Below, piece by piece: positions 1 to 52,386 of a stretch of 52,513 nt of DNA. The notes under the pieces are model-generated. The model was given only the letters and a program-made list of their open reading frames with translations, searched no databases and was not told the origin of the DNA. Source of the DNA: a virus. The stretch spans positions 1 through 52,513 of the IMG/VR virus record IMGVR_UViG_3300031565_000048; one strand, given 5' to 3'. The position numbers and the translations under genes were made by a program. Position 1 is the first letter of the stretch. Each line of letters begins with the position of its first letter.

Positions 1-127
1 GATTCGTTGACTGCCTGAGTTAGATTCCAATCATATTCTGTGAAAATGTCGATTATGTTCTGGTGCCTTTGTTGCATTAACCATTTCTTGAACTGTTTTC
101 TGCCTTCTTCTTGTCCTCTAGTTTGGT
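1..127. repeat. Terminal direct repeat, left copy
   Basis: These 127 bases recur without mismatch at the right end (52387-52513). One gene reads through the join in frame when a copy is removed, so the molecule closes into a circle of about 52,386 bp. The length of 127 equals a common assembler k-mer, so this is most simply an assembly overlap of a circular or circularly permuted genome, not a biological terminal repeat. Confidence 0.95.
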
Positions 128-236
128 AAATCTCATAACCACCAGAATATCCCCAAGTTTCCCATAGAGGGTAATGCCATAGGCATACGCCCTCGGCATA
201 TTCTGGGTGATCACAGTATTCTATTGAACATTTCAT
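1..236 (-). CDS. Small hypothetical protein crossing the circular join (N-terminal part)
   Basis: The ATG at 236 overlaps the stop of the upstream gene as ATGA. The frame is open to base 1 and continues at 52386 on the circle, ending at 52347, for 91 residues in all. The protein is rich in charged and aromatic residues and has an early Cys pair (CSIEYC). Its end, SMDSDIKRTMKNE, carries the array's KRT tail. I recognise no domain. The intact frame across the join is direct support for circularity. Confidence 0.75.
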   Translation of the reverse strand, partial: MKCSIEYCDHPEYAEGVCLWHYPLWETWGYSGGYEIYQTRGQEEGRKQFKKWLMQQRHQNIIDIFTEYDWNLTQAVNE

Positions 237-478
237 TGTGTTCGTTCTCCTTTAGAGTTGACGGATTTGATCACGCTCGCAGCCAACTCTTTGAACTCTT
301 TAAGATAATATTGGGCTGATCTTCGGTGGATCCCAAACTTTTCGGCGATTTCAAGGCTGGTGGGGGTGTTTTCAGCTATATAGAGCATGATTAGTCCCCA
401 CTGTTCATGATGTAGATCATTCTTCCATATTTCATGGATTTTACCGCAGTTAGTACAAAAAAAATATTGGGGGTTCAT
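233..478 (-). CDS. Small zinc-finger/HTH protein
   Basis: 81 residues. A CTNCGK half-knuckle near the N-terminus is followed by a helix-turn-helix-like stretch at about 40-70 (TSLEIAEKFGIHRRSAQYYL), which suggests a small DNA-binding regulator. It is preceded by GGTGAT as ribosome binding site. The C-terminus SVNSKGERTQ is a KRT-type tail that overlaps the start of the next gene. The function beyond DNA binding is inferred. Confidence 0.7.
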   Translation of the reverse strand: MNPQYFFCTNCGKIHEIWKNDLHHEQWGLIMLYIAENTPTSLEIAEKFGIHRRSAQYYLKEFKELAASVIKSVNSKGERTQ

Positions 479-482
479 AGTA

Positions 483-827
483 TCACCAGATTGGCTTCTC
501 TGTGTAGCTCTTGTCTTTGTCGTGGCGATGGTTACGGAATGCTTCTATGAGTTCGTTTTGTCTAGCGATTATGCGTATTAGTTCCTCTCGTAAATCGGTG
601 TTTAAAGCAGTTACAAGGTTTCCAGATAGGCGATATATTAAGACGTTCTCTGCCTTATTGACTGGCTTCCAGTCTACTTTTTCGCCTTCCTTCGCCAGTT
701 GTGCCTTGTCGATTATCTCAAGAAGTTCTATGCTGGTCTTGTTTTCGTATTCTTCGTCTAGGCTCTCATGGTCGTATATTTTTAGCAGCACTTCGTTTCT
801 AGGCGGTTCTACTTTTTTCATGTTCAT
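483..827 (-). CDS. Hypothetical acidic/helical protein
   Basis: 114 residues, charged and probably all-helical, with no family recognised. The start overlaps the stop of the ASCH-like gene upstream (ATGA) and the stop lies five bases before the next start, so it is translationally coupled on both sides. Confidence 0.6.
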   Translation of the reverse strand: MNMKKVEPPRNEVLLKIYDHESLDEEYENKTSIELLEIIDKAQLAKEGEKVDWKPVNKAENVLIYRLSGNLVTALNTDLREELIRIIARQNELIEAFRNHRHDKDKSYTEKPIW

Positions 828-1333
828 GTTTTTTCCTCTTTTTCCCTTCCGCTTGAGGCGGGGACGGGTTGTGTGTCTGCTTCTCCAGTGTCGGGATGCT
901 CCGCAGACTCGCTTCTTAAAACACTGGTTTTCCTAAGTTGCTGGGATGCTATGGACATCATGACTGTCATGGCCTCATCGAGTTCACCGTCTTCTATCAA
1001 TTCGATTGCCTCAGTTGGGTAATACTGAAAAAGGTAGGCCCACCGTTCTATCCAGCCTGGGTGCATTTTCTCGTAAAGTTCCTCATATTCGTGTGAAGAG
1101 TAGCCGCCCTCAGCCTCCGCCTCATCTGGTAGTATCATCCACCATTGAGGCCGCCCTATCTTTACCTCTAGGCGTTTAGCGGTTATCAAGATTCTACCGT
1201 TTGGGATGCCCTTGCAGGTTCGGCATGGCTGAACCGCGTAGAGCTTACCTACCTCGTATCTGTCTGAGATCCGCCGCGTCTGTGTCTTGGTTCCCGCCTT
1301 GATCTGCTCTATGTGGTCGCCCTCTGAGAAGAT
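824..1333 (-). CDS. ASCH/PUA-like domain protein with an apparent ATC start
   Basis: The frame is open from 1351 and has no ATG, GTG or TTG before about codon 57, where an ATG at 1189 would remove the conserved part. Residues 1-50 contain a motif ending GTKTQTRR, typical of ASCH domains (a PUA-like fold that binds RNA or modified nucleotides), followed by a Cys pair (CRTC). The junction with the upstream gene closely matches the one at 1965: AGGAGG, a short spacer, then GAATAATC here and GAATAATG there. I therefore place the start at ATC 1333, giving 169 residues; ATA at 1336 is the alternative. A sequencing error at the G/C base would also explain it. The C-terminal third is acidic and unrecognised. 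Confidence 0.65.
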   Translation of the reverse strand: MFSEGDHIEQIKAGTKTQTRRISDRYEVGKLYAVQPCRTCKGIPNGRILITAKRLEVKIGRPQWWMILPDEAEAEGGYSSHEYEELYEKMHPGWIERWAYLFQYYPTEAIELIEDGELDEAMTVMMSIASQQLRKTSVLRSESAEHPDTGEADTQPVPASSGREKEEKT

Positions 1334-1965
1334 TATTCGGTGTCCCTCCTGAGTTCAGCGTATTCGATGGGCTGAATGTTTTTGTTGAAGAATGCCCTTA
1401 TGCAGCCTTTGTGGTCTGATTGGTTTTCCCAATACTCGTAACAATCAACGCAGAGTTCAAGGTAGTCGCCATGTTCTTCGCAGCATTGAGGGTGATCTGG
1501 GGCTTGTATCTCATCGGCCCATGTTATTGGGTCGCCGCAGATGGCACAATTTGAGTCTGTGTAAACTTCCTCTGGATCTGGCTCCCATAGGAACTCGCCG
1601 CCGTATTTTTCTCTTTGTTCGAATAGGGTTAATTTGATGGAGGGAAGATACCAGGCTTTACCTATCAAGACTAGGAGAGGCAGCATTGCATATTCTAGGC
1701 GTTTCCACTTCCTACGCTTTTTCTCTCGATTATGATAGGTTTTCCACTTCTGTTCGTTGTCGTATTGGCATTCATCACAGCCATACCCGGTTTTGAAGAA
1801 ACTCGGTGAACCACATACAGGGCAGTGGAAGGTTCCCCAATCTCTCTGTCCCTTGATGGGAATGGGAAGCCAAGACCAGAACTTGATCATCGGGGCAGGG
1901 ATATGACCGTGAGGGGTTCTCACAAGGTCATAATAATTCGCGTTTTTAGGCTGTGCAAACTTCAT
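1333..1965 (-). CDS. Zinc-binding protein with two Cys clusters
   Basis: 210 residues from the ATG at 1965, chosen because it follows GGAGG and overlaps the upstream stop as TAATG. The first zinc ribbon at about 47-65 has CPVCG...CDEC. The second cluster at about 143-175 has CAICGD...CC...H...CVDC, resembling HNH-like or treble-clef zinc sites but without clear catalytic residues. It sits directly downstream of a radical SAM protein and ends in AELRR, as does that protein. Function unknown. Confidence 0.65.
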   Translation of the reverse strand: MKFAQPKNANYYDLVRTPHGHIPAPMIKFWSWLPIPIKGQRDWGTFHCPVCGSPSFFKTGYGCDECQYDNEQKWKTYHNREKKRRKWKRLEYAMLPLLVLIGKAWYLPSIKLTLFEQREKYGGEFLWEPDPEEVYTDSNCAICGDPITWADEIQAPDHPQCCEEHGDYLELCVDCYEYWENQSDHKGCIRAFFNKNIQPIEYAELRRDTE

Positions 1966-2678
1966 TATTCGGGCCTCCTTAGTTCGGCGCAGCAAATGGA
2001 CTCTACGTTTTCTTTTAGAATGTACTCGAACCATGTTTTATCCAGCCAATTTGTTAATTGACAGATTTTTTCATCTGTGGGTCTTGTGGTGTGGCTTGTG
2101 TAGTTCTCTAGACCTATTTCTATGGCCTCTGGCTGTATCGACATGATCCATGAAGCAAGTTCCCCAAAGTCGAAGTCTGAAAGTGGCTCCAAACTGAGAA
2201 AAGTTTTGAATCCGTTTAGCTTCATCTGTGAGAGACAATAGGCTCTTTCATGTGTACTTGGGGCCTTTGTCCAAGGGGTTAATCTATTTGTCTCAATGGT
2301 GGTACCTAGAATCACCTTTTCCTTCACTGCATCTAGGTCAAGATCTTTATCAAGGAAGCGACGGGGGTTCTTGGATTGTAGTAGGAACTTGTTGTTTGAA
2401 TTGTCTCTAAGTATGGTTAGTATTAGTTGGTATAGCCAAGAGTCGGGTACTTCATCACAGAACACATCACCCATGCTTCCGACGAATATCCAGGATTCAT
2501 CGTTTGGCATTGGGTCTTCTAGGAATTTTTCTCGGAACTGTGGGTGAAACTCTTTTCCCCATCTCTCAGTGAGTGCCCTAGCCCAGCAGTATTTACAATC
2601 GTGAGTGCAGCCCCATATTGGGTTCCATGTCCAGCCCACGGACTTGAACATGCGTCCTTTAGCTTTATTGAGTGTCAT
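1965..2678 (-). CDS. Radical SAM protein of the phage Gp37/Gp68 (DUF5131) type
   Basis: 237 residues. The N-terminus reads TWNPIWGCTHDCKYCWAR, with the C-x3-C-x2-C cluster that binds the 4Fe-4S centre of radical SAM enzymes, followed by FVGSMGDVF and FLLQSKNPRRF, as in the phage Gp37/Gp68 family. The reaction of this family is not established to my knowledge; it is common in phages and mobile DNA. It ends AELRRPE, with codons containing the AGGAGG of the next gene. The neighbouring zinc and ASCH-like genes may form a unit with it, but that is only contextual. Confidence 0.85.
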   Translation of the reverse strand: MTLNKAKGRMFKSVGWTWNPIWGCTHDCKYCWARALTERWGKEFHPQFREKFLEDPMPNDESWIFVGSMGDVFCDEVPDSWLYQLILTILRDNSNNKFLLQSKNPRRFLDKDLDLDAVKEKVILGTTIETNRLTPWTKAPSTHERAYCLSQMKLNGFKTFLSLEPLSDFDFGELASWIMSIQPEAIEIGLENYTSHTTRPTDEKICQLTNWLDKTWFEYILKENVESICCAELRRPE

Positions 2679-2830
2679 GTCCTATCGCCACCGTTCTTAA
2701 TGGATTCCTCTGACGTATGAGCCTCTGGGTGTATGCATTCTTTAGCGATGCAAAGAACACCCCATTTTAGTTCTCTCAATGCCCAGCAGTTTACCTTCTT
2801 ACAATCTTCGATTTTCACTGTCCTTGACAT
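2675..2830 (-). CDS. Small Cys-rich protein
   Basis: 51 residues from the ATG at 2830 (a longer in-frame start at 2887 lies inside the previous gene). Four cysteines in two C-x4-C pairs suggest a metal site. The tail SIKNGGDRT belongs to the array's conserved tail family and overlaps the next start. Confidence 0.65.
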   Translation of the reverse strand: MSRTVKIEDCKKVNCWALRELKWGVLCIAKECIHPEAHTSEESIKNGGDRT

Positions 2831-2834
2831 AGTA

Positions 2835-3029
2835 TCACGTCCTCTTTTCTTGATTCTTAATGGATTTACGTTTCTCCAAGTAACCATTAACTAGCTTAAC
2901 GAGTTTTTCTTGAAATTCCTCATCATGTTCTCTACAAAGAAGGACGCCTGGTTGTCTTAGTCGTTTTACCCCGAACATAGTTATTGTATTATATGCTGGG
3001 TTGTCACAAAAGTCACAGGTAGCCACCAT
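2835..3029 (-). CDS. Small zinc-finger protein
   Basis: 64 residues. CDFCDN at 5-10 and CREH at 32-35 form a likely C-C-C-H zinc site. The tail SIKNQEKRT is of the KRT type, and its last codons hold the AGAGGA ribosome binding site of the following gene. The start overlaps the upstream stop (TAATG). Confidence 0.7.
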   Translation of the reverse strand: MVATCDFCDNPAYNTITMFGVKRLRQPGVLLCREHDEEFQEKLVKLVNGYLEKRKSIKNQEKRT

Positions 3030-3202
3030 TATGTCCTTACCCCCGTGTATCTAATGGATTTGTCAACATGTCTTTCCATCCAACAGGCTCGGCAGACCCA
3101 CTTTATCAGAGGACGATCCTCATCTAACTGGTTAGGGCAACTCGGCACATAGTCGAGTGGATCTCCGCAGTAATAGCAGACTTTAGGTATATCTTCATCC
3201 AA
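3029..3202 (-). CDS. Zinc-ribbon microprotein
   Basis: 57 residues from a TTG at 3202, placed seven bases after a strong GGAGGT. CYYCG...C...CRAC gives a four-Cys ribbon. It ends DKSIRYTGVRT, another member of the tail family. It overlaps the end of the preceding gene by eight bases. Confidence 0.7.
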   Translation of the reverse strand: MDEDIPKVCYYCGDPLDYVPSCPNQLDEDRPLIKWVCRACWMERHVDKSIRYTGVRT

Positions 3203-3515
3203 CGATCTTTACCTCCTGTTTATTCTCTGGAGTGGAGATAATGGACATCAGTATCTCATGGTATTTCTGGAAGTGTTCTAAGGCGTCCATTTCGTCCATG
3301 TTATCATGATCGTAATTATTGTCACATTCAAGGATAGTTTTCTTGAGTTCTGCAACCAGATTCCATAGGCGTTGTCTTTCAAGTCTCTCAACTATGTACT
3401 CATATCGTAGTACGGATTTTTTCTCTGATGGGAGTGCTTTGAATGTCTCTCTAGCTTGATCTATTATTTCATTGGGGAATACCATTTCAGATAATATTTT
3501 TTCTTTTAGACTCAT
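3195..3515 (-). CDS. Hypothetical helical protein
   Basis: 106 residues, helical and charged, no family recognised. It has no KRT tail of its own; its last codons (QEV) instead hold the GGAGGT for the downstream TTG-start gene. Confidence 0.6.
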   Translation of the reverse strand: MSLKEKILSEMVFPNEIIDQARETFKALPSEKKSVLRYEYIVERLERQRLWNLVAELKKTILECDNNYDHDNMDEMDALEHFQKYHEILMSIISTPENKQEVKIVG

Positions 3516-3556
3516 TGTTCTCCATCCGTCCTCTTGGCGTTGGGGTTAATGGTCAT
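3512..3556 (-). CDS. Tail-only mini-ORF (14 residues)
   Basis: MTINPNAKRTDGEQ. The ATG overlaps the stop of the previous gene (ATGA) and the TGA overlaps the start of the next. The encoded peptide is only the KRT-type tail found at the ends of neighbouring genes. It may act as a translation-coupling leader or be a cassette whose body was lost. Whether the peptide accumulates is unknown. Confidence 0.4.
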   Translation of the reverse strand: MTINPNAKRTDGEQ

Positions 3557-3771
3557 TCTGGATCGTACTCCCTACCTTCGAGGATGCATTCAAGTTCGTA
3601 TCGCTTCTCGATGAAGGTTTCAGGGCTCATTGAGTAACCTAGACCATTTAACCAGATCTTGACCTTCTGGATTATTCCTTCTAAGTTCTTAATGTATTCA
3701 TGAATCTCTGTCTTGACGAGGTTTCCTTCCTCGTCGCAGACTAGATCCAGTATCGAAAAGGGTTTTTTCAT
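3553..3771 (-). CDS. Hypothetical protein
   Basis: 72 residues, acidic, no recognised domain. It ends REYDPE just upstream of a tail-only mini-ORF, as if its stop had moved ahead of the shared tail. Its start overlaps the stop of the gene upstream. Confidence 0.55.
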   Translation of the reverse strand: MKKPFSILDLVCDEEGNLVKTEIHEYIKNLEGIIQKVKIWLNGLGYSMSPETFIEKRYELECILEGREYDPE

Positions 3772-4187
3772 TGTGTTTCCTCCGTCCTCTTGGCATGGGT
3801 AACAATGGATAATTCGGTGATTTTCTGGTTGTAATCTGCCATTATTTTTCGTTCCAGAAAATTCAACTCTGAGGAACTTCGTGTTAATTCTGGTGTAGTG
3901 TTTGGGTATAGTTTTTCAAATTGTTGTCTTTCCTTATTTTTCTCGATAAGTTCATCTAGGGCCGCTTGATATTTTTTGATCTGGTATTTCGGGTCTAAGA
4001 TCTGTGATTTCTGTTCTTTTGAGGCAAACCCGCATGGCTCATATACATCTATGCTAAACATGGCTGGGTTCAAGTATGTGCTCTCTATTTTTCCGCACCT
4101 TCGACAGATGCGGCGATCACAATCAAATGTACCGAACTCATCATAGTAGAACCAGGCGTGGAAGCCTAGCAAACAACGTAGGTTCAT
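3768..4187 (-). CDS. DUF1660-like zinc protein with coiled coil
   Basis: 139 residues. The N-terminus (MNLRCLLGFHAW followed by CDRRICRRCGK) resembles phage DUF1660-type proteins, with a small Cys/His metal site. Residues about 65-130 are likely coiled coil. The end LSIVTHAKRTEETQ carries the tail motif. Function unknown. Confidence 0.65.
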   Translation of the reverse strand: MNLRCLLGFHAWFYYDEFGTFDCDRRICRRCGKIESTYLNPAMFSIDVYEPCGFASKEQKSQILDPKYQIKKYQAALDELIEKNKERQQFEKLYPNTTPELTRSSSELNFLERKIMADYNQKITELSIVTHAKRTEETQ

Positions 4188-4375
4188 TCTGTTGTCCTCC
4201 TTTCATGGGTGTTAATGGATTGACGTTTTTTCCACTCAATTTCAATGGGGCATTTTGGTTTTCGGATGCAGTTTAAACAATTATGGTAATCATCGCAGGG
4301 GAGATGTGGTTTCCCTAATTCTATCCATAGTTTTTCCTTTAGTAGATCTTCCTTAAAGCGGGATATTTTTTCCAT
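4184..4375 (-). CDS. Small Cys-rich protein
   Basis: 63 residues with a Cys cluster C-x5-C-x2-C-x5-C at 27-42, a spacing close to that in several other array proteins. It ends SINTHERRTTE, where the RRT codons form AGGAGGACA, the next gene's ribosome binding site. Confidence 0.65.
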   Translation of the reverse strand: MEKISRFKEDLLKEKLWIELGKPHLPCDDYHNCLNCIRKPKCPIEIEWKKRQSINTHERRTTE

Positions 4376-4379
4376 CTTC

Positions 4380-4583
4380 TCATGTCCTCCTTTCAGATGT
4401 GTTTTGGGTCGTGGTGAAGATGCTCACCAGGATATGATAGTCGCCCTTTTCGGTGGGTAGCGGTGTGCTTACGCTACAGCCGGGGGCAAACTCGTTTCTG
4501 ATGCGGTCCCCGATTATCTGTAGTGTTTGGGGGTCGTCACCGTAGAACTTGCCTTTCACTTTTTCCTTCATTTTCGTTTTCAT
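4380..4583 (-). CDS. Small basic hypothetical protein
   Basis: 67 residues, Lys-rich at the start. A downstream ATG four codons in is an alternative start. It ends in the tail TSERRT, the last one on this arc of the array. No family recognised. Confidence 0.6.
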   Translation of the reverse strand: MKTKMKEKVKGKFYGDDPQTLQIIGDRIRNEFAPGCSVSTPLPTEKGDYHILVSIFTTTQNTSERRT

Positions 4584-4634: not shown

Positions 4635-4841
4635 TCACCACCTCGAATGGATCTCGCCCCATGTGGAGGGCTCCTCAGGGATCAGGACGCTCGCCTTAGT
4701 GGTCTCGACTCCGCCGCCTATCCCGCTGCAGTCGTTGAAGGCCCTGCAACCCATGCAGTTGGAGGCCATGTACTTCTCGCCCAGCTCGTACATCTCGCCG
4801 ATACAGGAGGGGTATTTCTGGTTAGCCGTCTTCGTCACCAC
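4635..4841 (-). CDS. First gene of the array: Cys-cluster protein
   Basis: 68 residues from GTG at 4841, or 67 from GTG at 4838. Cys13, 29, 32 and 38 form a likely metal site. The gene lies directly behind a TATA box and the shared GTACGGGTAA element. The two genes with the same leader have GTGGTGATGAA at this place, whereas here ATG is replaced by ACG, so initiation must use GTG. Confidence 0.7.
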   Translation of the reverse strand: MVTKTANQKYPSCIGEMYELGEKYMASNCMGCRAFNDCSGIGGGVETTKASVLIPEEPSTWGEIHSRW

Positions 4842-4845
4842 AGTG

Positions 4846-4875
4846 AAGTACGGGTAATAAATATATAAAACTTTG
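4846..4875 (-). promoter_or_regulatory. Promoter with shared operator-like element (copy 1)
   Basis: Read on the minus strand, TTTATATA (plus 4862-4869) is followed by TTACCCGTAC (plus 4848-4857) and then the start codons about 28-31 bases from the box centre, giving a very short leader. The same TATA-plus-TTACCCGTAC arrangement occurs at 13783-13803 and 15147-15167. It should drive the array toward the circle join. Confidence 0.7.
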
Positions 4876-11873: not shown

Positions 11874-12098
11874 TTAGGTCGCCTCCGTGTAGTCACGGCC
11901 ACCCAGTTCATCGATCTTTTTAAGCATTGTACCCAACTGGATAGCCATCCCGTCGTTCACCCTGTCAATAAGGGCGTCAAGTATGTCGTTTTCTTCCTCA
12001 AGCTCTATGGTGAACTCCTGAGTGATCTCGTCCCGGTACTTGCCTTCGTAGTCAGGCAGCCGGGCGTTGACTCTGATCCGTTTAACTACCTTCATCAT
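11874..12098 (-). CDS. Hypothetical protein
   Basis: 74 residues with a basic beta-like N-terminus and an acidic helical middle. No family recognised. Coupled to the genes on both sides. Confidence 0.55.
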   Translation of the reverse strand: MMKVVKRIRVNARLPDYEGKYRDEITQEFTIELEEENDILDALIDRVNDGMAIQLGTMLKKIDELGGRDYTEAT

Positions 12099-12913
12099 CC
12101 GATCACGTCCTTTCTATTCAGCCGGAATATCCTGTTGCGTTGTATGAAGCCTGCTGCGAGCATGACGCCGGTTATGTCCGGCATTGCCTCCGCTGGGATT
12201 GCCTTTATGGGTTTCACGGTGATCTTCACGGTGTCCGACTTCACCTCAAAGTCGTCTAGGTTGAAGCCCGCCGCCTTCATCCAGCCCTCAGTCATCTCCT
12301 TGGCTTGGTCCCATGAATCCTCTGCACGGTTCAATTCGTCAGCGAGCAGCCACTCCGGCAGCTTTAGCTCGACGGGCTTCATGAAGTCTTGAACCCTGAC
12401 TGCGTCTTCCGGTGCTTTTCTTTGTGGGGTGTCAAACTCTGGGCCTAGACTCATCTCCTCGGCGCTGACATCGGCTGACCCCACGAAGTTACTGACGGCG
12501 CGGTTCCAAGCCCGGGTGAAGGCTATGGATCGGACGTCATGGTAGGGACGATCCTTATGGTGGATCAGGTTCGGCTCATCGATGGTGCAGCTGCCGACTC
12601 CAGTAGATCTCCTGCCCAGTCGGTTATAGACGCAGACAGTGTAGTTGAACCCGTAGAAACGGCCATCCTGGTATATCTCCTTCTCCAATAGTATCTCGTC
12701 GCTCAGGTCGAAGCCTTGGGCGAGTTTGGCGAATCCGCTGCGGGCTGTGTATTGCTTGTTTCCTTGGATGAAGTAGTCCTTGTTCTTCGTCATCAGGGTC
12801 TCCTTGACCTGGGCGACGTAGTTCGTCAGCTTCGTAAGTTCCTCGATGGGCATCATAGGGATGGCGAGTGCCAACTGTTCAGTGTTTGCTAGGGACCTGT
12901 CCTCATCAACCAT
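12095..12913 (-). CDS. Possible single-strand annealing-type protein
   Basis: 272 residues from ATG 12913 after GAGG; a TTG at 12922 is possible. The pattern KDYFIQGNKQYTARSGFAKL, a beta-rich middle, then SIAFTRAWNRAVSNFVG with VSAEE recalls phage proteins placed near Rad52/ERF-like annealing proteins. No diagnostic motif is conclusive. The acidic C-terminus has a second small beta domain. It sits in the replication block, which supports a role in DNA replication or recombination. Confidence 0.45.
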   Translation of the reverse strand: MVDEDRSLANTEQLALAIPMMPIEELTKLTNYVAQVKETLMTKNKDYFIQGNKQYTARSGFAKLAQGFDLSDEILLEKEIYQDGRFYGFNYTVCVYNRLGRRSTGVGSCTIDEPNLIHHKDRPYHDVRSIAFTRAWNRAVSNFVGSADVSAEEMSLGPEFDTPQRKAPEDAVRVQDFMKPVELKLPEWLLADELNRAEDSWDQAKEMTEGWMKAAGFNLDDFEVKSDTVKITVKPIKAIPAEAMPDITGVMLAAGFIQRNRIFRLNRKDVIG

Positions 12914-25366: not shown

Positions 25367-25399
25367 TTAACTAATATGGTTTACCTGGAACGTTATTTC
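25367..25399 (-). repeat. Duplicated gene end, displaced copy
   Basis: 33 bases encoding EITFQVNHIS and stop, identical at 27 of 33 positions to 26146-26178. Lying next to the following structural gene, it is probably the original end of the tail-terminator-like gene, now fused to the endonuclease. Confidence 0.8.
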
Positions 25400-26128: not shown

Positions 26129-26145
26129 AGTTTCTTGTACCTCAT

Positions 26146-26178
26146 TTAACTGACATGATTCACCTGAAAAGTTATTTC
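26146..26178 (-). repeat. Duplicated gene end, copy serving the target gene
   Basis: 33 bases encoding EITFQVNHVS and stop. Five of the six differences from the other copy are silent, so the protein end is preserved while the DNA differs. Confidence 0.8.
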
Positions 26179-26640
26179 GTAACGCAGAATCCTTGGCGAC
26201 GCATCCATCTCGTGGTGCGCTACGCCCTCGTCAAGCGGGATCTCGAAAGCTATCTTGGTGCAGGTGAAGTTAGTCCTCTCCTCATTCAGTATTCGGACAA
26301 CCTCGTACCGTATCTGCTCAGCGTAGTCGCGCCAAGTATCCGTCTCGTCGCCCGGTGGGATTGGCACCCAGACGTTCACCACGTACCGGTGGAAACTCAT
26401 CAAGACCAGCCCCGGAAGCAGTGTGCCCGGCGCGACTCCTAGATCGGATCCGAAATACCTGATAGGAGACGCTATCGGGCCGCTGACGATTATCTGGGCG
26501 TTCACGTTCGTGGCTCTAAGCTGCTTCCGGTCCACCCAACCCACGTCAAAATGCAGATGCCCGGCGTCAAGGGGCGTTAGTAAACCCCAGTTCGTCGCGA
26601 GCGACGCGATGATCTCCTCTGGGATCGTGGTCGTTGCCAT
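26146..26640 (-). CDS. Tail-terminator-like protein
   Basis: 164 residues. The pattern of an N-terminal helix, PLDAGHLHFDVGWVD and a late RYEVVRILNEER helix with beta strands fits tail terminator/completion proteins that follow head-tail connectors. It overlaps the connector stop by one base. Its final 11 codons, stop included, are duplicated at the end of the adjacent endonuclease gene. Confidence 0.6.
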   Translation of the reverse strand: MATTTIPEEIIASLATNWGLLTPLDAGHLHFDVGWVDRKQLRATNVNAQIIVSGPIASPIRYFGSDLGVAPGTLLPGLVLMSFHRYVVNVWVPIPPGDETDTWRDYAEQIRYEVVRILNEERTNFTCTKIAFEIPLDEGVAHHEMDASPRILRYEITFQVNHVS

Positions 26641-47076: not shown

Positions 47077-47313
47077 TTAGGACTCCTCTTCCTCGTTTGC
47101 TTTATGGACCCCGTGGCCCTCCCTAATCTGGTATGCCTTCACCGCCCTGTAGAGGTACATCCAGCCACACCCACAGTTATCACACCCCTGAACCCTGTCT
47201 GGGTGAAGCCTCCAGGGGCAGGCATCACATGGCGGCTCTACGGGTATCTTGAGAAGCTGGGCGTAGATTCTCAGCTTCTCCTTTGCTTTGGTGGGCCTGT
47301 GTCTTTCACTCAT
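47077..47313 (-). CDS. Cys-rich array protein
   Basis: 78 residues. CDACPW and CDNCGCGW form a compact metal site between a basic N-terminus and an acidic end. Overlaps the upstream gene by eight bases. Confidence 0.6.
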   Translation of the reverse strand: MSERHRPTKAKEKLRIYAQLLKIPVEPPCDACPWRLHPDRVQGCDNCGCGWMYLYRAVKAYQIREGHGVHKANEEEES

Positions 47314-47497
47314 CCTTATGCTCCTCCGGATAATGGATTTTAAACTTAGCTAAAGGATAAAGTGGAGTAGCCCACTGACAATCTGGGCATCTCCAAAATA
47401 TCTTTGAATATGTCAATCCATCAAGTAATTCATCAAGAACATCATTCCCACATCTGGGGCAAACATGAGGTTTAGTTATAACCGTTCTTTTACTCAC
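47306..47497 (-). CDS. Zinc-ribbon array protein
   Basis: 63 residues with CPRCGNDV and CPDCQWAT, a classical zinc ribbon, and an acidic end EEHKDE whose codons contain the GGA-type ribosome binding site of the next gene. Confidence 0.65.
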   Translation of the reverse strand: MSKRTVITKPHVCPRCGNDVLDELLDGLTYSKIFWRCPDCQWATPLYPLAKFKIHYPEEHKDE

Positions 47498-47678
47498 CCT
47501 TTGACTCCTCCGTTAATAGGATGCGGAGAACTTCTCGCCCCAGCCGTGTCGCATGGAAATAATGCGTAACGTGCCCACATTTGCAACTCCAATGTTTTAA
47601 TGCACCACACCCACATTCTTCGCTAGTGCAATAGATTCCGGAACCGTTGTCTGACCCACATTTCTCGCATTTACCCAT
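47490..47678 (-). CDS. Cys-rich array protein
   Basis: 62 residues from ATG 47678; ATG 47687 lies too close to the GGAGG. Eight cysteines (CEKCGS, CTSEECGCG, CKCGH) could bind two metals. Confidence 0.6.
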   Translation of the reverse strand: MGKCEKCGSDNGSGIYCTSEECGCGALKHWSCKCGHVTHYFHATRLGREVLRILLTEESKGE

Positions 47679-47814
47679 CCTTGGCATCCTCCGCTTTTAG
47701 GATTGATGAGCCGCATGTAATACATTCAACATGAATTTTTCTTGATGCCTTTCCACGGTAAACGTGAAAACATTTACCTCCACACTCTGCGCAGATTAGT
47801 TTTATTTTGTTCAT
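47671..47814 (-). CDS. Zinc-ribbon microprotein
   Basis: 47 residues: CAECGGKC and CITCGSS make a ribbon. Its ATG overlaps the upstream stop. Its last codons include the GGAGG of the next gene. Confidence 0.6.
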   Translation of the reverse strand: MNKIKLICAECGGKCFHVYRGKASRKIHVECITCGSSILKAEDAKDG

Positions 47815-48050
47815 TCCTCTTGCTCTCCCTCTTTATGGTCAATTAATTTAGCATCAAGAACCCATATCTCATCTGAGTCATTATCAATGCGTTCTAAGGC
47901 CCAATCTGCTGAAGCCTCGTAATCAGATGCTTCTAAAAACTTTTTATCGCATGATGGACATTTCGGGCAACCCATTTCATCTAATTTAAGAGTAGAATTA
48001 CAGATGTGGCAACGGGCTCTCAGTGATTCAAGATGTTCTCTTATGGACAT
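47811..48050 (-). CDS. Zinc-ribbon array protein
   Basis: 79 residues from ATG 48050 after GGAGG; the in-frame ATG at 48092 is inside the previous gene. CHICNSTL and CPKCPSCDKK give the metal site, and an acidic C-terminal domain follows. Confidence 0.6.
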   Translation of the reverse strand: MSIREHLESLRARCHICNSTLKLDEMGCPKCPSCDKKFLEASDYEASADWALERIDNDSDEIWVLDAKLIDHKEGEQEE

Positions 48051-48051
48051 C

Positions 48052-48180
48052 CTAAACGCCCTCCTCTTTACGGATTTCCTCTGAACGATCATAAAGATAA
48101 ATCAACCAAGGATGTTTTATCAAGTAAGCCAAAGCGTGCCAATAAAGCACCCACTCAGGTATTTTCTTAGTTCTTGACAA
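48052..48180 (-). CDS. Small aromatic-rich protein
   Basis: 42 residues from a TTG at 48180 after GGAGGTGCTTAGGAT. IPEWVLYWHALAYLIKHPWL is amphipathic or possibly membrane-associated. It begins MSRT, as do two other array genes, a sign of shared start modules. Confidence 0.5.
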   Translation of the reverse strand: MSRTKKIPEWVLYWHALAYLIKHPWLIYLYDRSEEIRKEEGV

Positions 48181-48183
48181 ATC

Positions 48184-48408
48184 CTAAGCACCTCCGTGTT
48201 TTAGGTCGTTTTCTAATGGGTAATCATCTGGCATGAATGGCATTCTCCCATATCTTTCAGGACTGTGTTTATTATGAACTTCTCTTATATGATCGGCAGT
48301 TTTTTTCAATAGTTTATCAAAATCGGTTTGCCGGATATTATCTTTAAATCCCCAAGTGTGCCAATCACAAAACGGGCATTCCATCCTTCTAACTCTTACT
48401 TTTTTCAT
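48184..48408 (-). CDS. C2H2-like array protein
   Basis: 74 residues from ATG 48408. CPFCDW and HIREVH form a C2H2-type zinc site. Ends KHGGA, with codons that hold the GGAGGTG of the next gene. Confidence 0.6.
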   Translation of the reverse strand: MKKVRVRRMECPFCDWHTWGFKDNIRQTDFDKLLKKTADHIREVHNKHSPERYGRMPFMPDDYPLENDLKHGGA

Positions 48409-48409
48409 C

Positions 48410-48622
48410 CTAAGCACCCTCATATTTACGGATAAGATTCTGAGGATCGGAAAACTTCAAGTTATAATTAGCCTCAAATACCCGAACCATGTCAATTAAC
48501 TGTCTAAGTTTCCGTTGATGTTTACTTGGAGGATTACGTATTGCCACATCTTCAAGTGGCTTCATCTTCCAGAACTCTTCAAGGAAGGTTTCTACAAGTT
48601 TCTTTAATTCAGTTTCACTCAT
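48410..48622 (-). CDS. Hypothetical helical protein
   Basis: 70 residues, helical, no Cys. The junction with the next gene (GGGTGCTTAGGATG) repeats the one at 48180, a second type of junction module. Confidence 0.55.
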   Translation of the reverse strand: MSETELKKLVETFLEEFWKMKPLEDVAIRNPPSKHQRKLRQLIDMVRVFEANYNLKFSDPQNLIRKYEGA

Positions 48623-49233
48623 GTCTCTATCCTCTTTGATTTGCTATTAGTGGATTTGAAGAAATCCAATAACTCTGTTTGTGGCCATGGCCCTTGTTTT
48701 TGGATCATTAGAAGCCAGTATGATTGTTTGGCTGTTTTACCAGCATATCCTACGGGGATTCTTAGGGCAACATCCCAGAGAGGGAGATATTCAAGAACCT
48801 CGTTTGTGCTTAGGCTGTTTTCACTCCACTTAAAGAATAGAATCCCGCCAGGTATTAGGACTCGTGCGATTTCCCTTTGGGTTTCGTAGATGAATCGCAT
48901 TAACTCGGTTTTTGTTTGGTACTTATCTGCTCCATAATAGACCGGCGGTGCTTCTCTGCTATGAGAGGGCCATTTCTTGTTCCATGTTTCTCGGTTTGGT
49001 GTGGTGAAGAGGCTGCTATTTTTTCTTTTGCCCCATTCATGTGGTGGATCAAACACAGCGAAGAACTTGGAATCTGGGGGGAGATCGGTATTAGTGGCAT
49101 CGCAGAGAAGGTCAGGGGGCAATGAGAGATCGGGTTCTTTATCTAAGAAGAGTATGTGTGGGCTATCTTTAAGGGTCCAGATACTACGGTTCCCGGCCGT
49201 GAAGTCAACTATTGTAGCATCTGGTTTCTCCAT
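48619..49233 (-). CDS. SAM-dependent DNA methyltransferase-like protein
   Basis: 204 residues. VDFTAGNRSIW is the SAM loop, FAVFDPPHEW the catalytic DPP(Y/H) motif of amino methyltransferases, and EIARVLIPGGILFFKWSEN the conserved strand after it. It may modify viral DNA against host restriction. DPPH instead of DPPY is seen in some family members. Ends TNSKSKRIET, a KRT-type tail. Confidence 0.7.
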   Translation of the reverse strand: MEKPDATIVDFTAGNRSIWTLKDSPHILFLDKEPDLSLPPDLLCDATNTDLPPDSKFFAVFDPPHEWGKRKNSSLFTTPNRETWNKKWPSHSREAPPVYYGADKYQTKTELMRFIYETQREIARVLIPGGILFFKWSENSLSTNEVLEYLPLWDVALRIPVGYAGKTAKQSYWLLMIQKQGPWPQTELLDFFKSTNSKSKRIET

Positions 49234-49235
49234 TT

Positions 49236-49439
49236 TTATGTCCTCTTTGTTTGCTTTCTTCTGGATTCAATTATCTTGGCATGTTGTTTACAATATTCAC
49301 CGTTAGGACCATACCCTCTTTTCCTTTTACATTGATAGAAATGCCAGCCAGTTTCATCTACCACCTCAGCAATACACCGAGTAGAATCTTCAGGAATACC
49401 TTGGGGCCTTATATTCGATTGATCATACACTCTATCCAT
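49236..49439 (-). CDS. Small Cys/His array protein
   Basis: 67 residues. CIAEV...YQCKRKRGYG...YCKQH resembles a small zinc site. Ends RRKQTKRT, the plain KRT tail. Confidence 0.6.
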   Translation of the reverse strand: MDRVYDQSNIRPQGIPEDSTRCIAEVVDETGWHFYQCKRKRGYGPNGEYCKQHAKIIESRRKQTKRT

Positions 49440-49443
49440 TTTT

Positions 49444-49476
49444 CTATGTCCTCTTTTTGGTTTCGACTTGGGTCAT
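49444..49476 (-). CDS. Tail-only mini-ORF (10 residues)
   Basis: MTQVETKKRT. The AAGAGGACA that encodes KRT is the ribosome binding site of the next gene. Like the mini-ORFs at 3512 and 50176 it begins MT, but here a few bases separate it from the previous stop. Confidence 0.35.
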   Translation of the reverse strand: MTQVETKKRT

Positions 49477-49484
49477 TTCATTTT

Positions 49485-49739
49485 TCACCTTGAAAGTAAA
49501 TACCTCATAAGTACATCGATGTTCGGCGAAGTCTTTTTGGCTCTTCTCTTCTTTATTCTCTCTATGATTTCGTTATGAATCTGTTTTTCCTGACAGTCAG
49601 GCTTCCCATGATTCGGGCATTTCTTCCATTCAGGGCAGACCACCAAGTTATTGGCGTTTATCTTGATATGAACTGCCCTGCGTTTGCCCTCAACCGTGCA
49701 GAGAACCACGCCTTCTTGGTAGCTGTGCTTACTCATCAT
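49485..49739 (-). CDS. Cys-rich array protein
   Basis: 84 residues. CPEWKKCPNHGKPDC is a compact metal site following a beta-rich N-terminus. The basic C-terminal helix suggests nucleic-acid contact. Confidence 0.6.
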   Translation of the reverse strand: MMSKHSYQEGVVLCTVEGKRRAVHIKINANNLVVCPEWKKCPNHGKPDCQEKQIHNEIIERIKKRRAKKTSPNIDVLMRYLLSR

Positions 49740-50179
49740 TCTACCTCCATCCGTTTAGTGTGTTTGATAATGGATGTATCAAGAATTAATGGTTCTAAGT
49801 TAGCGAGTTGAGTTAATATCTCATTAGCGTAAATATGGGAAACATGATTCTGAGGCCAAGTAATAGCTTTATCATCAATGTATGCAGTAGCGAATACCTT
49901 TCCATCCATCTGGGTGGCGATTTTATCAAAGGGCATATTATAATGTTCAAGGTATTCCTTTATTGCTACCTTGATTTTCTTGTAGTCGTGATTCTCCCAT
50001 TGCCCATTAGTTCTACATGTGAATATTACTATTTCATAGCCAAGTTTCTTTATTCCTTCAAGCAAATACCTTACGCTTTCATTAGGCTCCCCGAATTTAT
50101 ATGGATCATAGTGTCCATCATAATGACATATTACTCCATCAAAGTCTACTGCAATATGTCTAACTTTAATCCCCATCAT
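49736..50179 (-). CDS. HAD-superfamily phosphatase
   Basis: 147 residues. Motif I AVDFDGVIC near residue 8, motif II region IVIFTCR, and motif IV AYIDDKAI are those of small HAD hydrolases common in phages, some acting on nucleotides or nucleic acid ends. Ends TSIIKHTKRMEVE, a tail-family member. Confidence 0.8.
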   Translation of the reverse strand: MMGIKVRHIAVDFDGVICHYDGHYDPYKFGEPNESVRYLLEGIKKLGYEIVIFTCRTNGQWENHDYKKIKVAIKEYLEHYNMPFDKIATQMDGKVFATAYIDDKAITWPQNHVSHIYANEILTQLANLEPLILDTSIIKHTKRMEVE

Positions 50180-50214
50180 TCCACCGTCCTCTTAGTATCT
50201 GAGTTACTGGTCAT
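50176..50214 (-). CDS. Tail-only mini-ORF (12 residues)
   Basis: MTSNSDTKRTVE. The ATG overlaps the previous stop as ATGA and the stop overlaps the next start. Confidence 0.4.
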   Translation of the reverse strand: MTSNSDTKRTVE

Positions 50215-50387
50215 TCTTCTTTGAACTCCATCTTAATTTTATAGTGTGTTTGGTGTCTCTCCTCTCTTATCTCATCTAAGACTTCAACAAGTTCTGGTAA
50301 TGTTTCATAGGGCTGGGAGCCGTGACGCTGATATATTCCATCAATTAGAATGTTTAACACGGTTTTTGCTTCTTCTTTAAGACTCAT
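50211..50387 (-). CDS. Hypothetical helical protein
   Basis: 58 residues, helical: MSLKEEAKTVLNILIDGIYQ and on. Begins MSLKE like the gene at 3515. Its ATG overlaps the stop of the gene upstream. Confidence 0.55.
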   Translation of the reverse strand: MSLKEEAKTVLNILIDGIYQRHGSQPYETLPELVEVLDEIREERHQTHYKIKMEFKEE

Positions 50388-50665
50388 TTTTCCACTCTCC
50401 TAAGTTCTTTAGAGATAATGGAGCCGTTTCTCTTTGTGATCTCAACACCACAGTAAAACAATGTCTCGCCTTCTTGCATGGTGTCAAGGATTTTAGCTGT
50501 TCCAGCGGCTCTAATTAAGCTGCTTCCTCTTGAATGTTTATTCACAAGTTCCTTTGTTGTCGCCACTCGTTTACCGTATAGAAAGTCGGGGTAATTGTTC
50601 TGTAGAAGCCTCCAATGTTCCTTGAAGGCTAAATCAAATAGAAGGTCATCTGATATGGGCGTCAT
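50384..50665 (-). CDS. Hypothetical protein, N-terminus uncertain
   Basis: 93 residues from ATG 50665. The same frame is open for about 30 further codons with protein-like sequence (SSDSISGIQWLDRAVENFDQ) but no normal start. An ATG in another frame at the upstream gene's stop reaches this frame only through a run of six T (plus 50746-50751), so a frameshift or an indel is possible. Confidence 0.55.
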   Translation of the reverse strand: MTPISDDLLFDLAFKEHWRLLQNNYPDFLYGKRVATTKELVNKHSRGSSLIRAAGTAKILDTMQEGETLFYCGVEITKRNGSIISKELRRVEK

Positions 50666-50754
50666 TTTGTTTAGTATCGGCCATACTTGATCAAAGTTTT
50701 CTACGGCTCGGTCAAGCCATTGAATGCCGCTTATTGAGTCTGAGGAAAAAAGGC

Positions 50755-51108
50755 TCAGTTGGGGTCATCCTCCTGCCATGCAGAATAGACTTTCTGCCAA
50801 TCTGAGCCGTAGATTCGTTTGAAGTCGTCGATTGTTGGTTGTCTGCGTTCTATTTCTTTCCATCCATGATCATCTTTTAGCCAGTGGCGTTCTAACTTGA
50901 TTGACTTATTCGCTTCTTTAAGAACATAAAGCGGGTCAGCCTTCTCAAGTAGTTTCTTCAGTTTCTCTTGGTCCTCTTCGCATGGTGTGAACCATTCACC
51001 GAATGGACCTAGATAGAAGCGTATGGTGTCTGTCTCTGTAGTTACTGATTTGACGTATTCGCCTGTTTCGTCGTCTATGGTCTCCAAATTGTATTCGCGT
51101 GTTTTCAT
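50755..51108 (-). CDS. Hypothetical protein
   Basis: 117 residues from ATG 51108, which overlaps the upstream stop; the in-frame start at 51207 lies within that gene. Mixed alpha/beta, Trp-rich end (GWKEIERRQ, WQKVYSAWQE). No family recognised. Confidence 0.6.
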   Translation of the reverse strand: MKTREYNLETIDDETGEYVKSVTTETDTIRFYLGPFGEWFTPCEEDQEKLKKLLEKADPLYVLKEANKSIKLERHWLKDDHGWKEIERRQPTIDDFKRIYGSDWQKVYSAWQEDDPN

Positions 51109-51326
51109 TTTTCCATCTCCTTGGACCGTAATTGCTGGGAGTAAATGGATTCTTTTGAGTAGCTGATCAATATGACGGGTGGTTCGGTATTTTCTGTGAC
51201 GCAGCATTTCTTATACATGCCCTTAATATTAGGGTCATAGGTGCAAGCCCCAGATGCGATGTCAACACCACATCTTTGAGCCGTTTTACATTTCTCTGGA
51301 TATTTAGGGCATGGAAGCTTAGGCAT
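51105..51326 (-). CDS. Cys-rich array protein
   Basis: 73 residues. CPKYPEKCKTAQRCG and CTYDPNIKGMYKKCC make one or two metal sites. The end ESIYSQQLRSKEMEK is nearly the same as that of the next gene upstream (SISSQQLGTRESKGERTDA). Confidence 0.6.
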   Translation of the reverse strand: MPKLPCPKYPEKCKTAQRCGVDIASGACTYDPNIKGMYKKCCVTENTEPPVILISYSKESIYSQQLRSKEMEK

Positions 51327-51504
51327 CGGTCCTTTCTCCTTTAGATTCTCTGGTCCCGAGTTGCTGGGAGCTAATGGATGGGTTCACTTTGCTTTCTATT
51401 TCCCCAGTATCTCTGTAGTATCCGTACCAGAAAACGATGCAATTATCACAATCATGGTTTTTTGTGCATTCAAGTTCAGTAAATTTACATTTCAGTGGGG
51501 GCAT
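51319..51504 (-). CDS. Cys-rich array protein
   Basis: 61 residues. CKFTELECTKNHDCDNC is a four-Cys site close in spacing to those in neighbouring genes. It ends in the longest version of the tail, NPSISSQQLGTRESKGERTD plus a final Ala. Confidence 0.6.
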   Translation of the reverse strand: MPPLKCKFTELECTKNHDCDNCIVFWYGYYRDTGEIESKVNPSISSQQLGTRESKGERTDA

Positions 51505-51845
51505 TACCCAAGTTCCTCCGTTACGTTTGTGATGTGAGTTTCTAGTTGGTTTGAATCGTAGAGATAAACGATCTTGGTGACATCGGCTACTAATCGAGGG
51601 TACTTGGTGTATCCTACGACAAACACGGCTTTATCGTGTTTCAGTTGATTGCCTTGAAATACTATGTTTCTTCCTTTGTAGAATTGACCAAGTAATCTAG
51701 ATCTCTTCTCGATAAGTCGATTCCACCAGTGATCTGAAGCATCACGATATTCAACTGTCTTTTTACCTGATTTGATGGCTTCATATAGATCGCCATACTT
51801 CTCAAACCCTTCTAAATATCTTTTCAAGACAAAATGTGCTGGCAT
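51504..51845 (-). CDS. ASCH-domain protein
   Basis: 113 residues. AIKSGKKTVEYRDASDHWWN is the conserved ASCH front motif, and AVFVVGYTKYPRLVADVTKI the following beta strands. ASCH is a PUA-related fold thought to bind RNA or modified bases. This is the second ASCH-like protein of the array. It overlaps both neighbours by one base. Confidence 0.75.
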   Translation of the reverse strand: MPAHFVLKRYLEGFEKYGDLYEAIKSGKKTVEYRDASDHWWNRLIEKRSRLLGQFYKGRNIVFQGNQLKHDKAVFVVGYTKYPRLVADVTKIVYLYDSNQLETHITNVTEELG

Positions 51846-52036
51846 TAGGGCGTCCTCTTTTTGGTTTCGTCTACGGTTTCCTCTGAACTATTATTTTTAT
51901 CAAAATACCATATAGGTAAATCTTGACAATCGGTACAGTTAGACCTTGAACCCCCACCATATGGACAGCCAAGCGGATCTTCTCTAGCAGCAGGACATAG
52001 CCCCCAATCATCATCTTTTATGATAGTTCTTGACAA
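51845..52036 (-). CDS. Cys-rich array protein
   Basis: 63 residues from a TTG at 52036 (MSRTIIK). CPAAREDPLGCPYGGGSRSN followed by CTDC forms a four-Cys cluster. Ends DETKKRTP, a KRT tail. Confidence 0.6.
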   Translation of the reverse strand: MSRTIIKDDDWGLCPAAREDPLGCPYGGGSRSNCTDCQDLPIWYFDKNNSSEETVDETKKRTP

Positions 52037-52037
52037 G

Positions 52038-52178
52038 CTAAATCGACCTCTTCCTGTGTTTCTCTAAGGATGTCCTTTCAGCCATCATAATGTCCCCACA
52101 TTCAAAATCGTAATCACAGTATTTACAAAGCATTGAAGGTTGGCATTCTGGATATTTCTTACCATCAGTATCAGTCAT
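52038..52178 (-). CDS. Cys-rich microprotein
   Basis: 46 residues. C12, C18, C21 and C27 (CQPSMLCKYCDYDFEC) have the C-x5-C-x2-C-x5-C spacing shared with other array proteins. The ATG overlaps the upstream stop. Confidence 0.6.
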   Translation of the reverse strand: MTDTDGKKYPECQPSMLCKYCDYDFECGDIMMAERTSLEKHRKRSI

Positions 52179-52354
52179 TTTATTTCTATCCTCTTACTAT
52201 CTGATTTAGCGGAGTCATGTATTTCTCTAATTTTTTGATGACGTTCTTGGACAGTTCCATGCCACTTATAAGAACCCATCAATCGAGTCCGATCTTTGCC
52301 TGTTAATTCGTTTTCCCACCAACGGATTATTTTATGAATATCCATTTTACTCAT
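52175..52354 (-). CDS. Small basic protein
   Basis: 59 residues: MSKMDIHKIIRWWENELTGK and on, basic and helical. Ends AKSDSKRIEIK, a tail-family member. The ATG overlaps the stop of the gene that crosses the join. Confidence 0.6.
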   Translation of the reverse strand: MSKMDIHKIIRWWENELTGKDRTRLMGSYKWHGTVQERHQKIREIHDSAKSDSKRIEIK

Positions 52355-52386
52355 TTTTCATCGTCCTCTTAATATCTGAATCCATT
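52347..52386 (-). CDS. Small hypothetical protein crossing the circular join (C-terminal part)
   Basis: Last 13 codons of the gene that starts at 236, stop TAA at 52347. The codons for K-R-T contain the AGAGGA ribosome binding site of the next gene, whose ATG at 52354 overlaps this stop. Confidence 0.7.

What the first reader, a model, noticed from the sequence alone, without database searches (positions are those of the whole stretch)
48620..52386. Conserved junction module gives unrelated small proteins a common C-terminal tail
In one array that continues across the circle join (about 48.6 kb to 4.6 kb), about 20 gene junctions carry the same module: AATCCATTA, a spacer, AAGAGGACG, then the next ATG. 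Translated, it becomes an ending such as SIKNQEKRT, SINTHERRT or SDIKRT on proteins that otherwise share nothing. The KRT codons are the next gene's ribosome binding site. Cluster K mycobacteriophages have start-associated sequences at many starts, a known parallel in principle, but there the repeat is not, as far as I know, a coding tail. It could be a recombination handle that lets small genes shuffle as in-frame cassettes, a coupling device, or an RNA-level control site.
Basis: partly seen in the sequence, partly recalled or inferred. Interest (0 to 1): 0.9.

Follow-up and report, generated by a model that had tools for sequence, protein, structure and literature searches.

The report
Repeated translated gene junctions, archaeal virus
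In an archaeal virus, a row of more than 30 tiny unrelated genes is joined by copies of one short DNA module that adds a similar tail to each protein while carrying the ribosome start signal for the next gene, probably a translation relay whose sequence spread by recombination between junctions.

Summary
In the leftward 10.2-kb array (4.6 kb, across the join, to 47.1 kb), AAGAGGA occurs upstream of 13 of 35 starts (0.4 expected) and TCCATTA upstream of 9 (0.2 expected); TCCATTA enrichment is absent from the rest of the genome and from relatives. About 18 junctions end in a KRT/ERRT/KRI-type tail, 11 carry in-frame TCCATT (Ser-Ile), about 6 carry both TCCATT and AGGAC. All seven strongest DNA repeats of the array lie at junctions. 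Gene bodies share nothing detectable.

The tail is frame-locked (11/11) yet nucleotide-identical with rare codons. Its copies differ mostly by nonsynonymous changes, and two homologues elsewhere lack it. Three wider gaps hold mini-ORFs that carry the tail with its own ATG. A related virus has a different frame-locked tail (DSS) at its junctions. RNA folding shows nothing.

Best reading: translated termination-reinitiation junctions on one polycistronic mRNA, whose sequence is homogenised within each genome by copying or recombination between junctions; the peptide is a by-product. The virus encodes a probable Rad52-like annealing protein. Nearest precedents: Start-Associated Sequences (SAS/ESAS) of actinophages and boundary-homology modules. 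A new, coding variant. Cassette shuffling is plausible but unproven.

The parts
4851..4870 (-). Probable leaderless archaeal promoter of the array (TTTTATATATTTATTACCCG), GTG start of first gene at 4841
   Evidence: TATA-like box about 24 nt upstream of GTG; the following leader repeats at about 15167 and 13803 with CTTATATATTGTTACCCGTAC; only two other weak TATA matches in the array, both inside genes
47077..52386 (-). Right part of the tiny-gene array (continues across the join at 52386/1)
   Evidence: ORFs and junctions; GC about 0.41 vs about 0.55 elsewhere
1..4583 (-). Left part of the tiny-gene array
4188..4219 (-). Module TCCATTA..AAGGAGGACA; tail SINTHERRTTE
   Evidence: 35-bp repeat with the 2830 junction
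3772..3809 (-). Module TCCATTG..AAGAGGACG; tail SIVTHAKRTEETQ
3512..3556 (-). Mini-ORF MTINPNAKRTDGEQ carrying the module, ATGA overlap with both neighbours
3203..3245 (-). Module, tail SIISTPENKQEVKIVG
3030..3058 (-). Module, tail SIRYTGVRT
2831..2864 (-). Module TCCATTA..AAGAGGACG, tail SIKNQEKRT
2679..2704 (-). Module, tail SIKNGGDRT; AGGAC lies 1 base from ATG
1966..2000 (-). Module variant TCCATTT..CTAAGGAGG, tail SICCAELRRPE
237..267 (-). Module variant, tail SVNSKGERTQ
52362..52379 (-). Module variant TCAGATATTAAGAGGACG, tail SDIKRTMKNE
52189..52208 (-). Module variant TAAATCAGATAGTAAGAGGA, tail SDSKRIEIK
51852..51869 (-). Module variant CGAAACCAAAAAGAGGAC (identical 18-mer at 49465-49448)
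51327..51378 (-). Module, tail SISSQQLGTRESKGERTDA
51109..51149 (-). Module, tail SIYSQQLRSKEMEK; homologue in G006/L007 lacks this tail
50388..50422 (-). Module, tail SIISKELRRVEK
50176..50214 (-). Mini-ORF MTSNSDTKRTVE carrying the module, ATGA overlap with both neighbours; apparent chimera of the 3515 and 52354 junctions
49740..49774 (-). Module, tail SIIKHTKRMEVE
49444..49476 (-). Mini-ORF MTQVETKKRT carrying the module
48623..48656 (-). Module variant AATCCACTA..AAGAGGATA, tail STNSKSKRIET; 43% identical homologue in G005 ends before it
12095..12913 (-). Probable Rad52-like single-strand annealing protein (candidate driver of junction recombination)
   Evidence: AlphaFold2 model, mean pLDDT 52; 27 best PDB matches all RAD52, best E 2e-3; sequence relatives among phage records only in methanogen viruses

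Best explanation
The module is a translated gene junction. One leaderless promoter near 4.87 kb drives a roughly 10-kb polycistronic mRNA of tiny genes (inferred from sequence). At each junction the ribosome translates through the Shine-Dalgarno, stops on or next to the following start codon, and reinitiates there (inferred; the geometry is shown). Where two genes do not abut, a mini-ORF carries the tail and bridges the gap. The junction DNA (TCCATTA, spacer, AAGAGGAC, start region) is repeated because junctions have been copied from one another, by tandem duplication, gene conversion or annealing at short homologies, probably helped by the virus's Rad52-like protein. This keeps junctions similar within a genome while they differ between viruses. 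The shared C-terminal peptide is a tolerated by-product, kept in frame because translation must run through the site to couple. Recombination between such modules could add, remove or swap small genes without breaking coupling; that step is a hypothesis.
For: Repeats sit at junctions: 17 ungapped repeats score 13 or more (1-4 in shuffles); 14 of 17, and 7 of 7 scoring 14 or more, have both copies at junctions, which cover 28% of the array. Rate of similar junction pairs (score 13 or more): 14/595 in the array, 2/1596 in the rest of the genome, 2.8 per 1000 in 80 control loci, which include two with repeats of their own. C-terminal peptide pairs scoring 30 or more: 2.0% vs 0.11% in controls and 0% for internal windows. 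Frame lock: TCCATT in frame 0 in 11 of 11 copies near the end of an upstream ORF (one further copy, at the 47313 junction outside the KRT-type set, is out of frame), although stop/start offsets differ; TCC is 13% of Ser codons and ATT 16% of Ile codons in the bodies, so conservation is at nucleotide level. Among repeated tails 22 of 27 codon differences are nonsynonymous, pN/pS 0.71, so no strong peptide selection. Homologues of two array genes end before the tail. Neighbouring junctions are more alike (6 of 14 pairs, p = 8e-5) and some junctions look chimeric. Stop-start distances are -8 to +4 at 31 of 34 array junctions, roughly 21 of 57 elsewhere. In Haloferax, gaps of about 20 nt abolish reinitiation; in E. 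[quoted passage not shown] G005 has its own frame-locked tail: DSS 6 times in 858 tail residues, 0 in 3493 body residues; GAYAGTTC in frame 6 of 7. Rad52-like gene; Rad52-like phage recombinases work on short diverged homologies (PMC3945230).
Against: No relative with the same array in another order was found, so gene gain or loss at modules is not observed. G008 has the Rad52-like homologue but no junction repeat family. The TCCATTA part has no known role in reinitiation. The mini-ORF bridges are not significant alone: shuffles that keep the flanking stop and start give all three about 32% of the time. The RAD52 match rests on a low-confidence model built from two sequences. The DUF5131 protein of ANMV-1 has a C-terminus of similar length, so its tail here is a replacement or the native end rather than a clean addition.
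Confidence: 0.55

Rival explanations
1. A cis-acting nucleic-acid signal comparable to SAS/ESAS: TCCATTA plus AAGAGGAC is a binding site for a viral or host factor (translation activator, processing enzyme or internal promoter element) under direct selection at each junction.
For: Nucleotide-level conservation with rare codons; conserved bases beyond the Shine-Dalgarno, as argued for SAS in PMC3203893; ESAS-like second element upstream; motif confined to one transcription unit.
Against: TCCATT-to-ATG distance varies from 26 to 52 nt and follows the upstream reading frame rather than the start, which a free-standing signal would not need; only a graded subset of junctions has it; no RNA structure (mean z -0.36); no Rfam match; no TATA box at the junctions.
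Confidence: 0.2
2. A functional C-terminal peptide (degron, targeting or docking tag) shared by the small proteins.
For: Same reading frame 11/11, tail provided with its own ATG in mini-ORFs, second virus with its own frame-locked tail.
Against: Differences among tails are mostly nonsynonymous, Ser-Ile codons are identical, tails end differently after KRT, homologues in other viruses lack the tail, and the tail differs completely in the related virus G005.
Confidence: 0.1
3. Purely convergent by-product: Shine-Dalgarno sequences inside overlapping gene ends force similar K/R/G/E-rich C-termini, with no shared ancestry.
For: SD-coded C-termini are slightly alike in all genomes examined (C-terminal vs internal pairs in controls 0.39% vs 0.26% at score 26).
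Against: Does not explain TCCATTA, the 18-35-bp junction repeats, the use of the weaker AAGAGGA in place of AGGAGG used elsewhere in the genome, or the 18-fold excess over controls.
Confidence: 0.05
4. Old tandem gene duplication: gene plus junction duplicated repeatedly; bodies diverged beyond recognition while junctions stayed similar.
For: Neighbouring junctions are the most alike (p = 8e-5); some neighbours share a similar first few residues (MPPLKC / MPKLPC) and many are small Cys-rich proteins.
Against: No body homology in 595 pairs; apparent mosaic junctions joined across the array.
Confidence: 0.1

Closest known systems
Start-Associated Sequences and extended SAS (SAS/ESAS) of Cluster K mycobacteriophages and Cluster EF Microbacterium phages (PMC3203893, PMC7302621)
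   Same: Many near-identical copies at gene starts in the non-structural region of one genome, containing a Shine-Dalgarno but conserved beyond it, with a second element upstream, private to a virus group
   Different: Here an archaeal virus; the module is usually translated in one frame as the C-terminus of the upstream protein; different sequence; no inverted repeats; conservation graded
Translational coupling by termination-reinitiation at overlapping genes in archaea (PMC6728339, PMC10666635)
   Same: -4, -1 and -8 overlaps with the Shine-Dalgarno inside the upstream gene; about 34 serial junctions
   Different: Known pairs are not described as sharing a repeated junction sequence or tail; the mini-ORF bridges are an addition
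Short conserved boundary sequences between phage genes as recombination targets (model summarised in PMC3233612) and Rad52-like relaxed recombination (PMC3945230)
   Same: Homology at gene boundaries, variable genes between them, probable annealing protein in the genome
   Different: Boundary homology is coding and frame-locked; exchange between viruses at these sites not observed
Mobile regulatory cassettes of T4-type phages (Arbiol et al. 2010, seen only as a citation in PMC3950731; content from memory)
   Same: Dispersed short cassettes at gene junctions proposed to mediate shuffling
   Different: Those carry promoters and stem-loops in intergenic DNA; here no promoter or stable hairpin is seen

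Membership tests
SAS/ESAS start-associated repeats | Conserved repeat within a few bases of many start codons, containing the SD and conserved beyond it | tested here: met
   AAGAGGAC(G) about 6-20 nt upstream; the C after AGGA and TCCATTA are conserved beyond SD pairing
SAS/ESAS start-associated repeats | 13-bp consensus GGGATAGGAGCCC (cluster K) or GGGAAAGGACCCC (cluster EF) | tested here: not met
   Array modules read TCCATTA..AAGAGGAC; unrelated apart from the SD core
SAS/ESAS start-associated repeats | ESAS element upstream: imperfect 17-bp inverted repeats (cluster K) | tested here: not met
   No structure at junctions, mean z -0.36; cluster EF ESAS is described differently, around a GTAGAG core
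Termination-reinitiation junctions | Stop/start overlap or very short gap | tested here: met
   31 of 34 junctions between -8 and +4; 3 bridged by mini-ORFs
Termination-reinitiation junctions | Downstream translation depends on upstream translation | not testable with these tools
   needs reporter or ribosome-profiling data
Boundary-homology recombination modules | Repeats located at gene boundaries, not in bodies | tested here: met
   14/17 and 7/7 of repeats at junctions
Boundary-homology recombination modules | Module boundaries coincide with gene gain/loss or order change between relatives | tested here: inconclusive
   Array genes almost all absent from 12 structural relatives; no relative shares the array, so breakpoints cannot be mapped
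Rad52-like annealing proteins (gene 12095-12913) | RAD52 fold | tested here: inconclusive
   27 top PDB matches all RAD52 but best E 2e-3 on a pLDDT-52 model
Integron-type gene cassettes | attC-like folded recombination sites recognised by an integrase | tested here: not met
   No conserved fold at junctions, no Rfam hit; integrase not searched for

The most novel reading that the evidence does not exclude
A coding recombination site: a short, always-translated tail plus reinitiation site acts as a frame-keeping handle, so small genes can be inserted, deleted or swapped by annealing recombination without breaking the translation relay. It would be an integrase-free gene-cassette array, with the mini-ORFs as empty cassettes, evolving in concert within each archaeal virus lineage.
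Probability: 0.3. Interest if true: 0.75.

Novelty: new variant of a known kind. Interest (0 to 1): 0.55.

Why it matters
How viruses gain and reshuffle accessory genes without breaking expression is an open question, and repeated start-associated sequences were described in 2011 without a known function. A frame-locked, translated version that recurs with a different sequence in a related virus separates the models: it argues against a specific peptide or a fixed binding site and for a coupling relay kept uniform by recombination. That can be tested with reporter pairs in Haloferax and with strain-level metagenomes.

Tried and rejected
RNA hairpin at junctions: no signal; Rfam none; no tRNA; bacterial promoter/terminator scan near chance. 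Module in other viruses: AATCCATTA-N6-16-AAGAGGACG gave 9 single, context-free hits in IMG/VR, judged chance. Shared start TTGTCAAGAACTA (52036, 48180 and G005 973): the 16-base form gave 16 viral hits, near chance apart from G005. Array proteins used as queries (DUF5131, methyltransferase, HAD) found no close relatives in viral contigs. Mini-ORF bridges as independent proof: expected about 32% of the time given the flanks, so only supporting. Gene-body paralogy: none significant. TM4 as positive control for SAS: record not held. Structure of 13898-14599: model too poor.
Full report
What the window is. The record is a circular virus genome of 52,386 bases shown with a 127-base redundancy. It has a terminase, a tail tape-measure-type protein and an MCM helicase whose matches among phage records are all archaeal viruses by name. 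DUF5131 has relatives that include ANMV-1 and a Methanomicrobiales virus, and the 12095-12913 protein matches only viruses of Methanobacteriales. Three operons, including the array, start with a repeated TATA-box and leaderless-type leader, TTATATATT.TTACCCGTAC.....TGTGGTGA. I therefore take it as an archaeal tailed virus; the host is unknown.

The array. From 4.58 kb leftward across the join to 47.08 kb, about 35 small genes lie on the minus strand. GC is about 0.41-0.46 against about 0.55 elsewhere. Many are Cys-rich. Only two of them have recognisable relatives among twelve related contigs outside the identical fragment G001, although the structural genes are 40-86% identical. Stop-to-start distances are -8 to +4 at 31 of 34 junctions. 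Two junctions seem to use non-ATG starts overlapping the stop (CTGA near 50758; ATA/ATC near 1333).

Observation check. AAGAGGA and TCCATTA are strongly enriched upstream of array starts and TCCATTA is not enriched elsewhere in this genome or in its relatives. An unbiased repeat search in the array finds 17 repeats where shuffles give 1-4, and all seven of the strongest lie at junctions on both sides. Compared with 80 control loci, similar junction pairs are about eight times more frequent even though the controls include two loci with repeats of their own: L068, a Methanosarcinales provirus-like contig with AATAGGAGGTGARAAAAGGAAAAATG at many starts, and L017, promoter/operator repeats. At protein level, C-terminal 18-mers of the array are alike about 18 times more often than in controls while internal windows are not. 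The module is graded: few junctions carry the full form, and there are sub-families (SI..KRT, SI..ELRR, SDxKRT, ETKKRT, and a separate GAGGGTGCTTAGGATG class at 48.0-48.4 kb).

Coding or not. All 11 copies of TCCATT at the KRT- and ELRR-type junctions are in the Ser-Ile frame even though the offset between the two genes differs; a twelfth copy at the 47313 junction, outside that set, is out of frame. Three junctions have gaps of 31-45 nt, and in each the module lies in a short ORF with its own ATG: MTINPNAKRTDGEQ, MTSNSDTKRTVE and MTQVETKKRT. Two of these overlap both neighbours by ATGA. Taken alone this is not surprising, since shuffles give all three about 32% of the time, but it means the module is translated everywhere. 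Against selection on the peptide: Ser-Ile is always written with two uncommon codons (13% and 16%), 22 of 27 differences between repeated tails are nonsynonymous (pN/pS 0.71, a small and ascertained sample), the methyltransferase homologue in G005 and the Cys-rich homologue in G006/L007 end before the tail, and AGGAC persists at 2678 where it lies 1 base from the ATG.

A parallel in a relative. G005, with related structural genes, has a different tail. DSS occurs six times in the last 22 residues of its accessory proteins and never in 3,493 body residues, and GAYAGTTC is in frame in 6 of 7 copies. The wider C-terminal statistic is only mildly raised in G005 and G003, and G008 shows no clear family. 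So the form recurs and the sequence does not. Similarity within a genome together with difference between genomes is what copying between junctions would leave.

Signs of copying. Neighbouring junctions are the most alike (6 of 14 strong pairs, p = 8e-5). Some look chimeric: the 50179 junction resembles 3515 on its left (AGAATGACCA.TAAC) and 52354 on its right (TCAGATA.TAAGAGGACG), while 3515 resembles 3771 on its right. The gene at 12095-12913 gives a model of low confidence whose 27 best matches among solved structures are all RAD52. Rad52-like phage recombinases act on short diverged homologies (PMC3945230).

Mechanism. In Haloferax, reinitiation is nearly lost once the stop and the next start are about 20 nt apart; in E. 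[quoted passage not shown] A chain of tiny genes from one promoter therefore benefits if every junction is translated up to the next start. This accounts for the frame lock, the overlaps and the bridging mini-ORFs. The TCCATTA part is not explained by coupling. I attribute it to shared ancestry of junctions, and a binding site remains the main rival. That junctions serve as handles for moving genes is consistent with everything seen but is not shown, because no relative carries the same array.

Verdict. The feature is real and unusual, akin to SAS/ESAS (PMC3203893, PMC7302621) but coding and frame-locked, and it is recurrent in one relative with another sequence. I rate it a new variant of a known kind.

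Noticed in passing
window 10.8-11.6 kb, minus strand: A second small family of similar gene junctions: GAGGCTGAGGG, giving tails EAEG / EAEGVE / EAEGEVGKSE.
   Followed up: partly
window about 15167, 13803 and 4860, minus strand: Repeated leaderless-type promoter TTATATATT.TTACCCGTAC.....TGTGGTGA.GAA.ACG at three operon starts.
   Followed up: partly
window 25367-26640, minus strand: Two neighbouring genes share the C-terminus EITFQVNHxS; probably paralogues.
   Followed up: no
window near 50758 and 1333, minus strand: Probable non-ATG starts (CTG overlapping TGA; ATA or ATC next to TAA) directly after AGGAGG; the 824-1333 ORF looks ASCH-like.
   Followed up: no
L068 2111-5161: Methanosarcinales provirus-like contig with its own repeated, non-coding start module AATAGGAGGTGARAAAAGGAAAAATG and GGGGCGATGAACCCCGC hairpins.
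   Followed up: partly
L017 54-3203: Several near-identical promoter/operator blocks TTTCCGGAAGATTTCTCTTGACA..AAGCTTCCGGAAGGTTTATAGTTAGATCATGG.
   Followed up: no
window 52036 and 48180; L029 961-973: Identical 13-base gene start TTGTCAAGAACTA (LSRT) on three otherwise different small genes in two viruses.
   Followed up: partly
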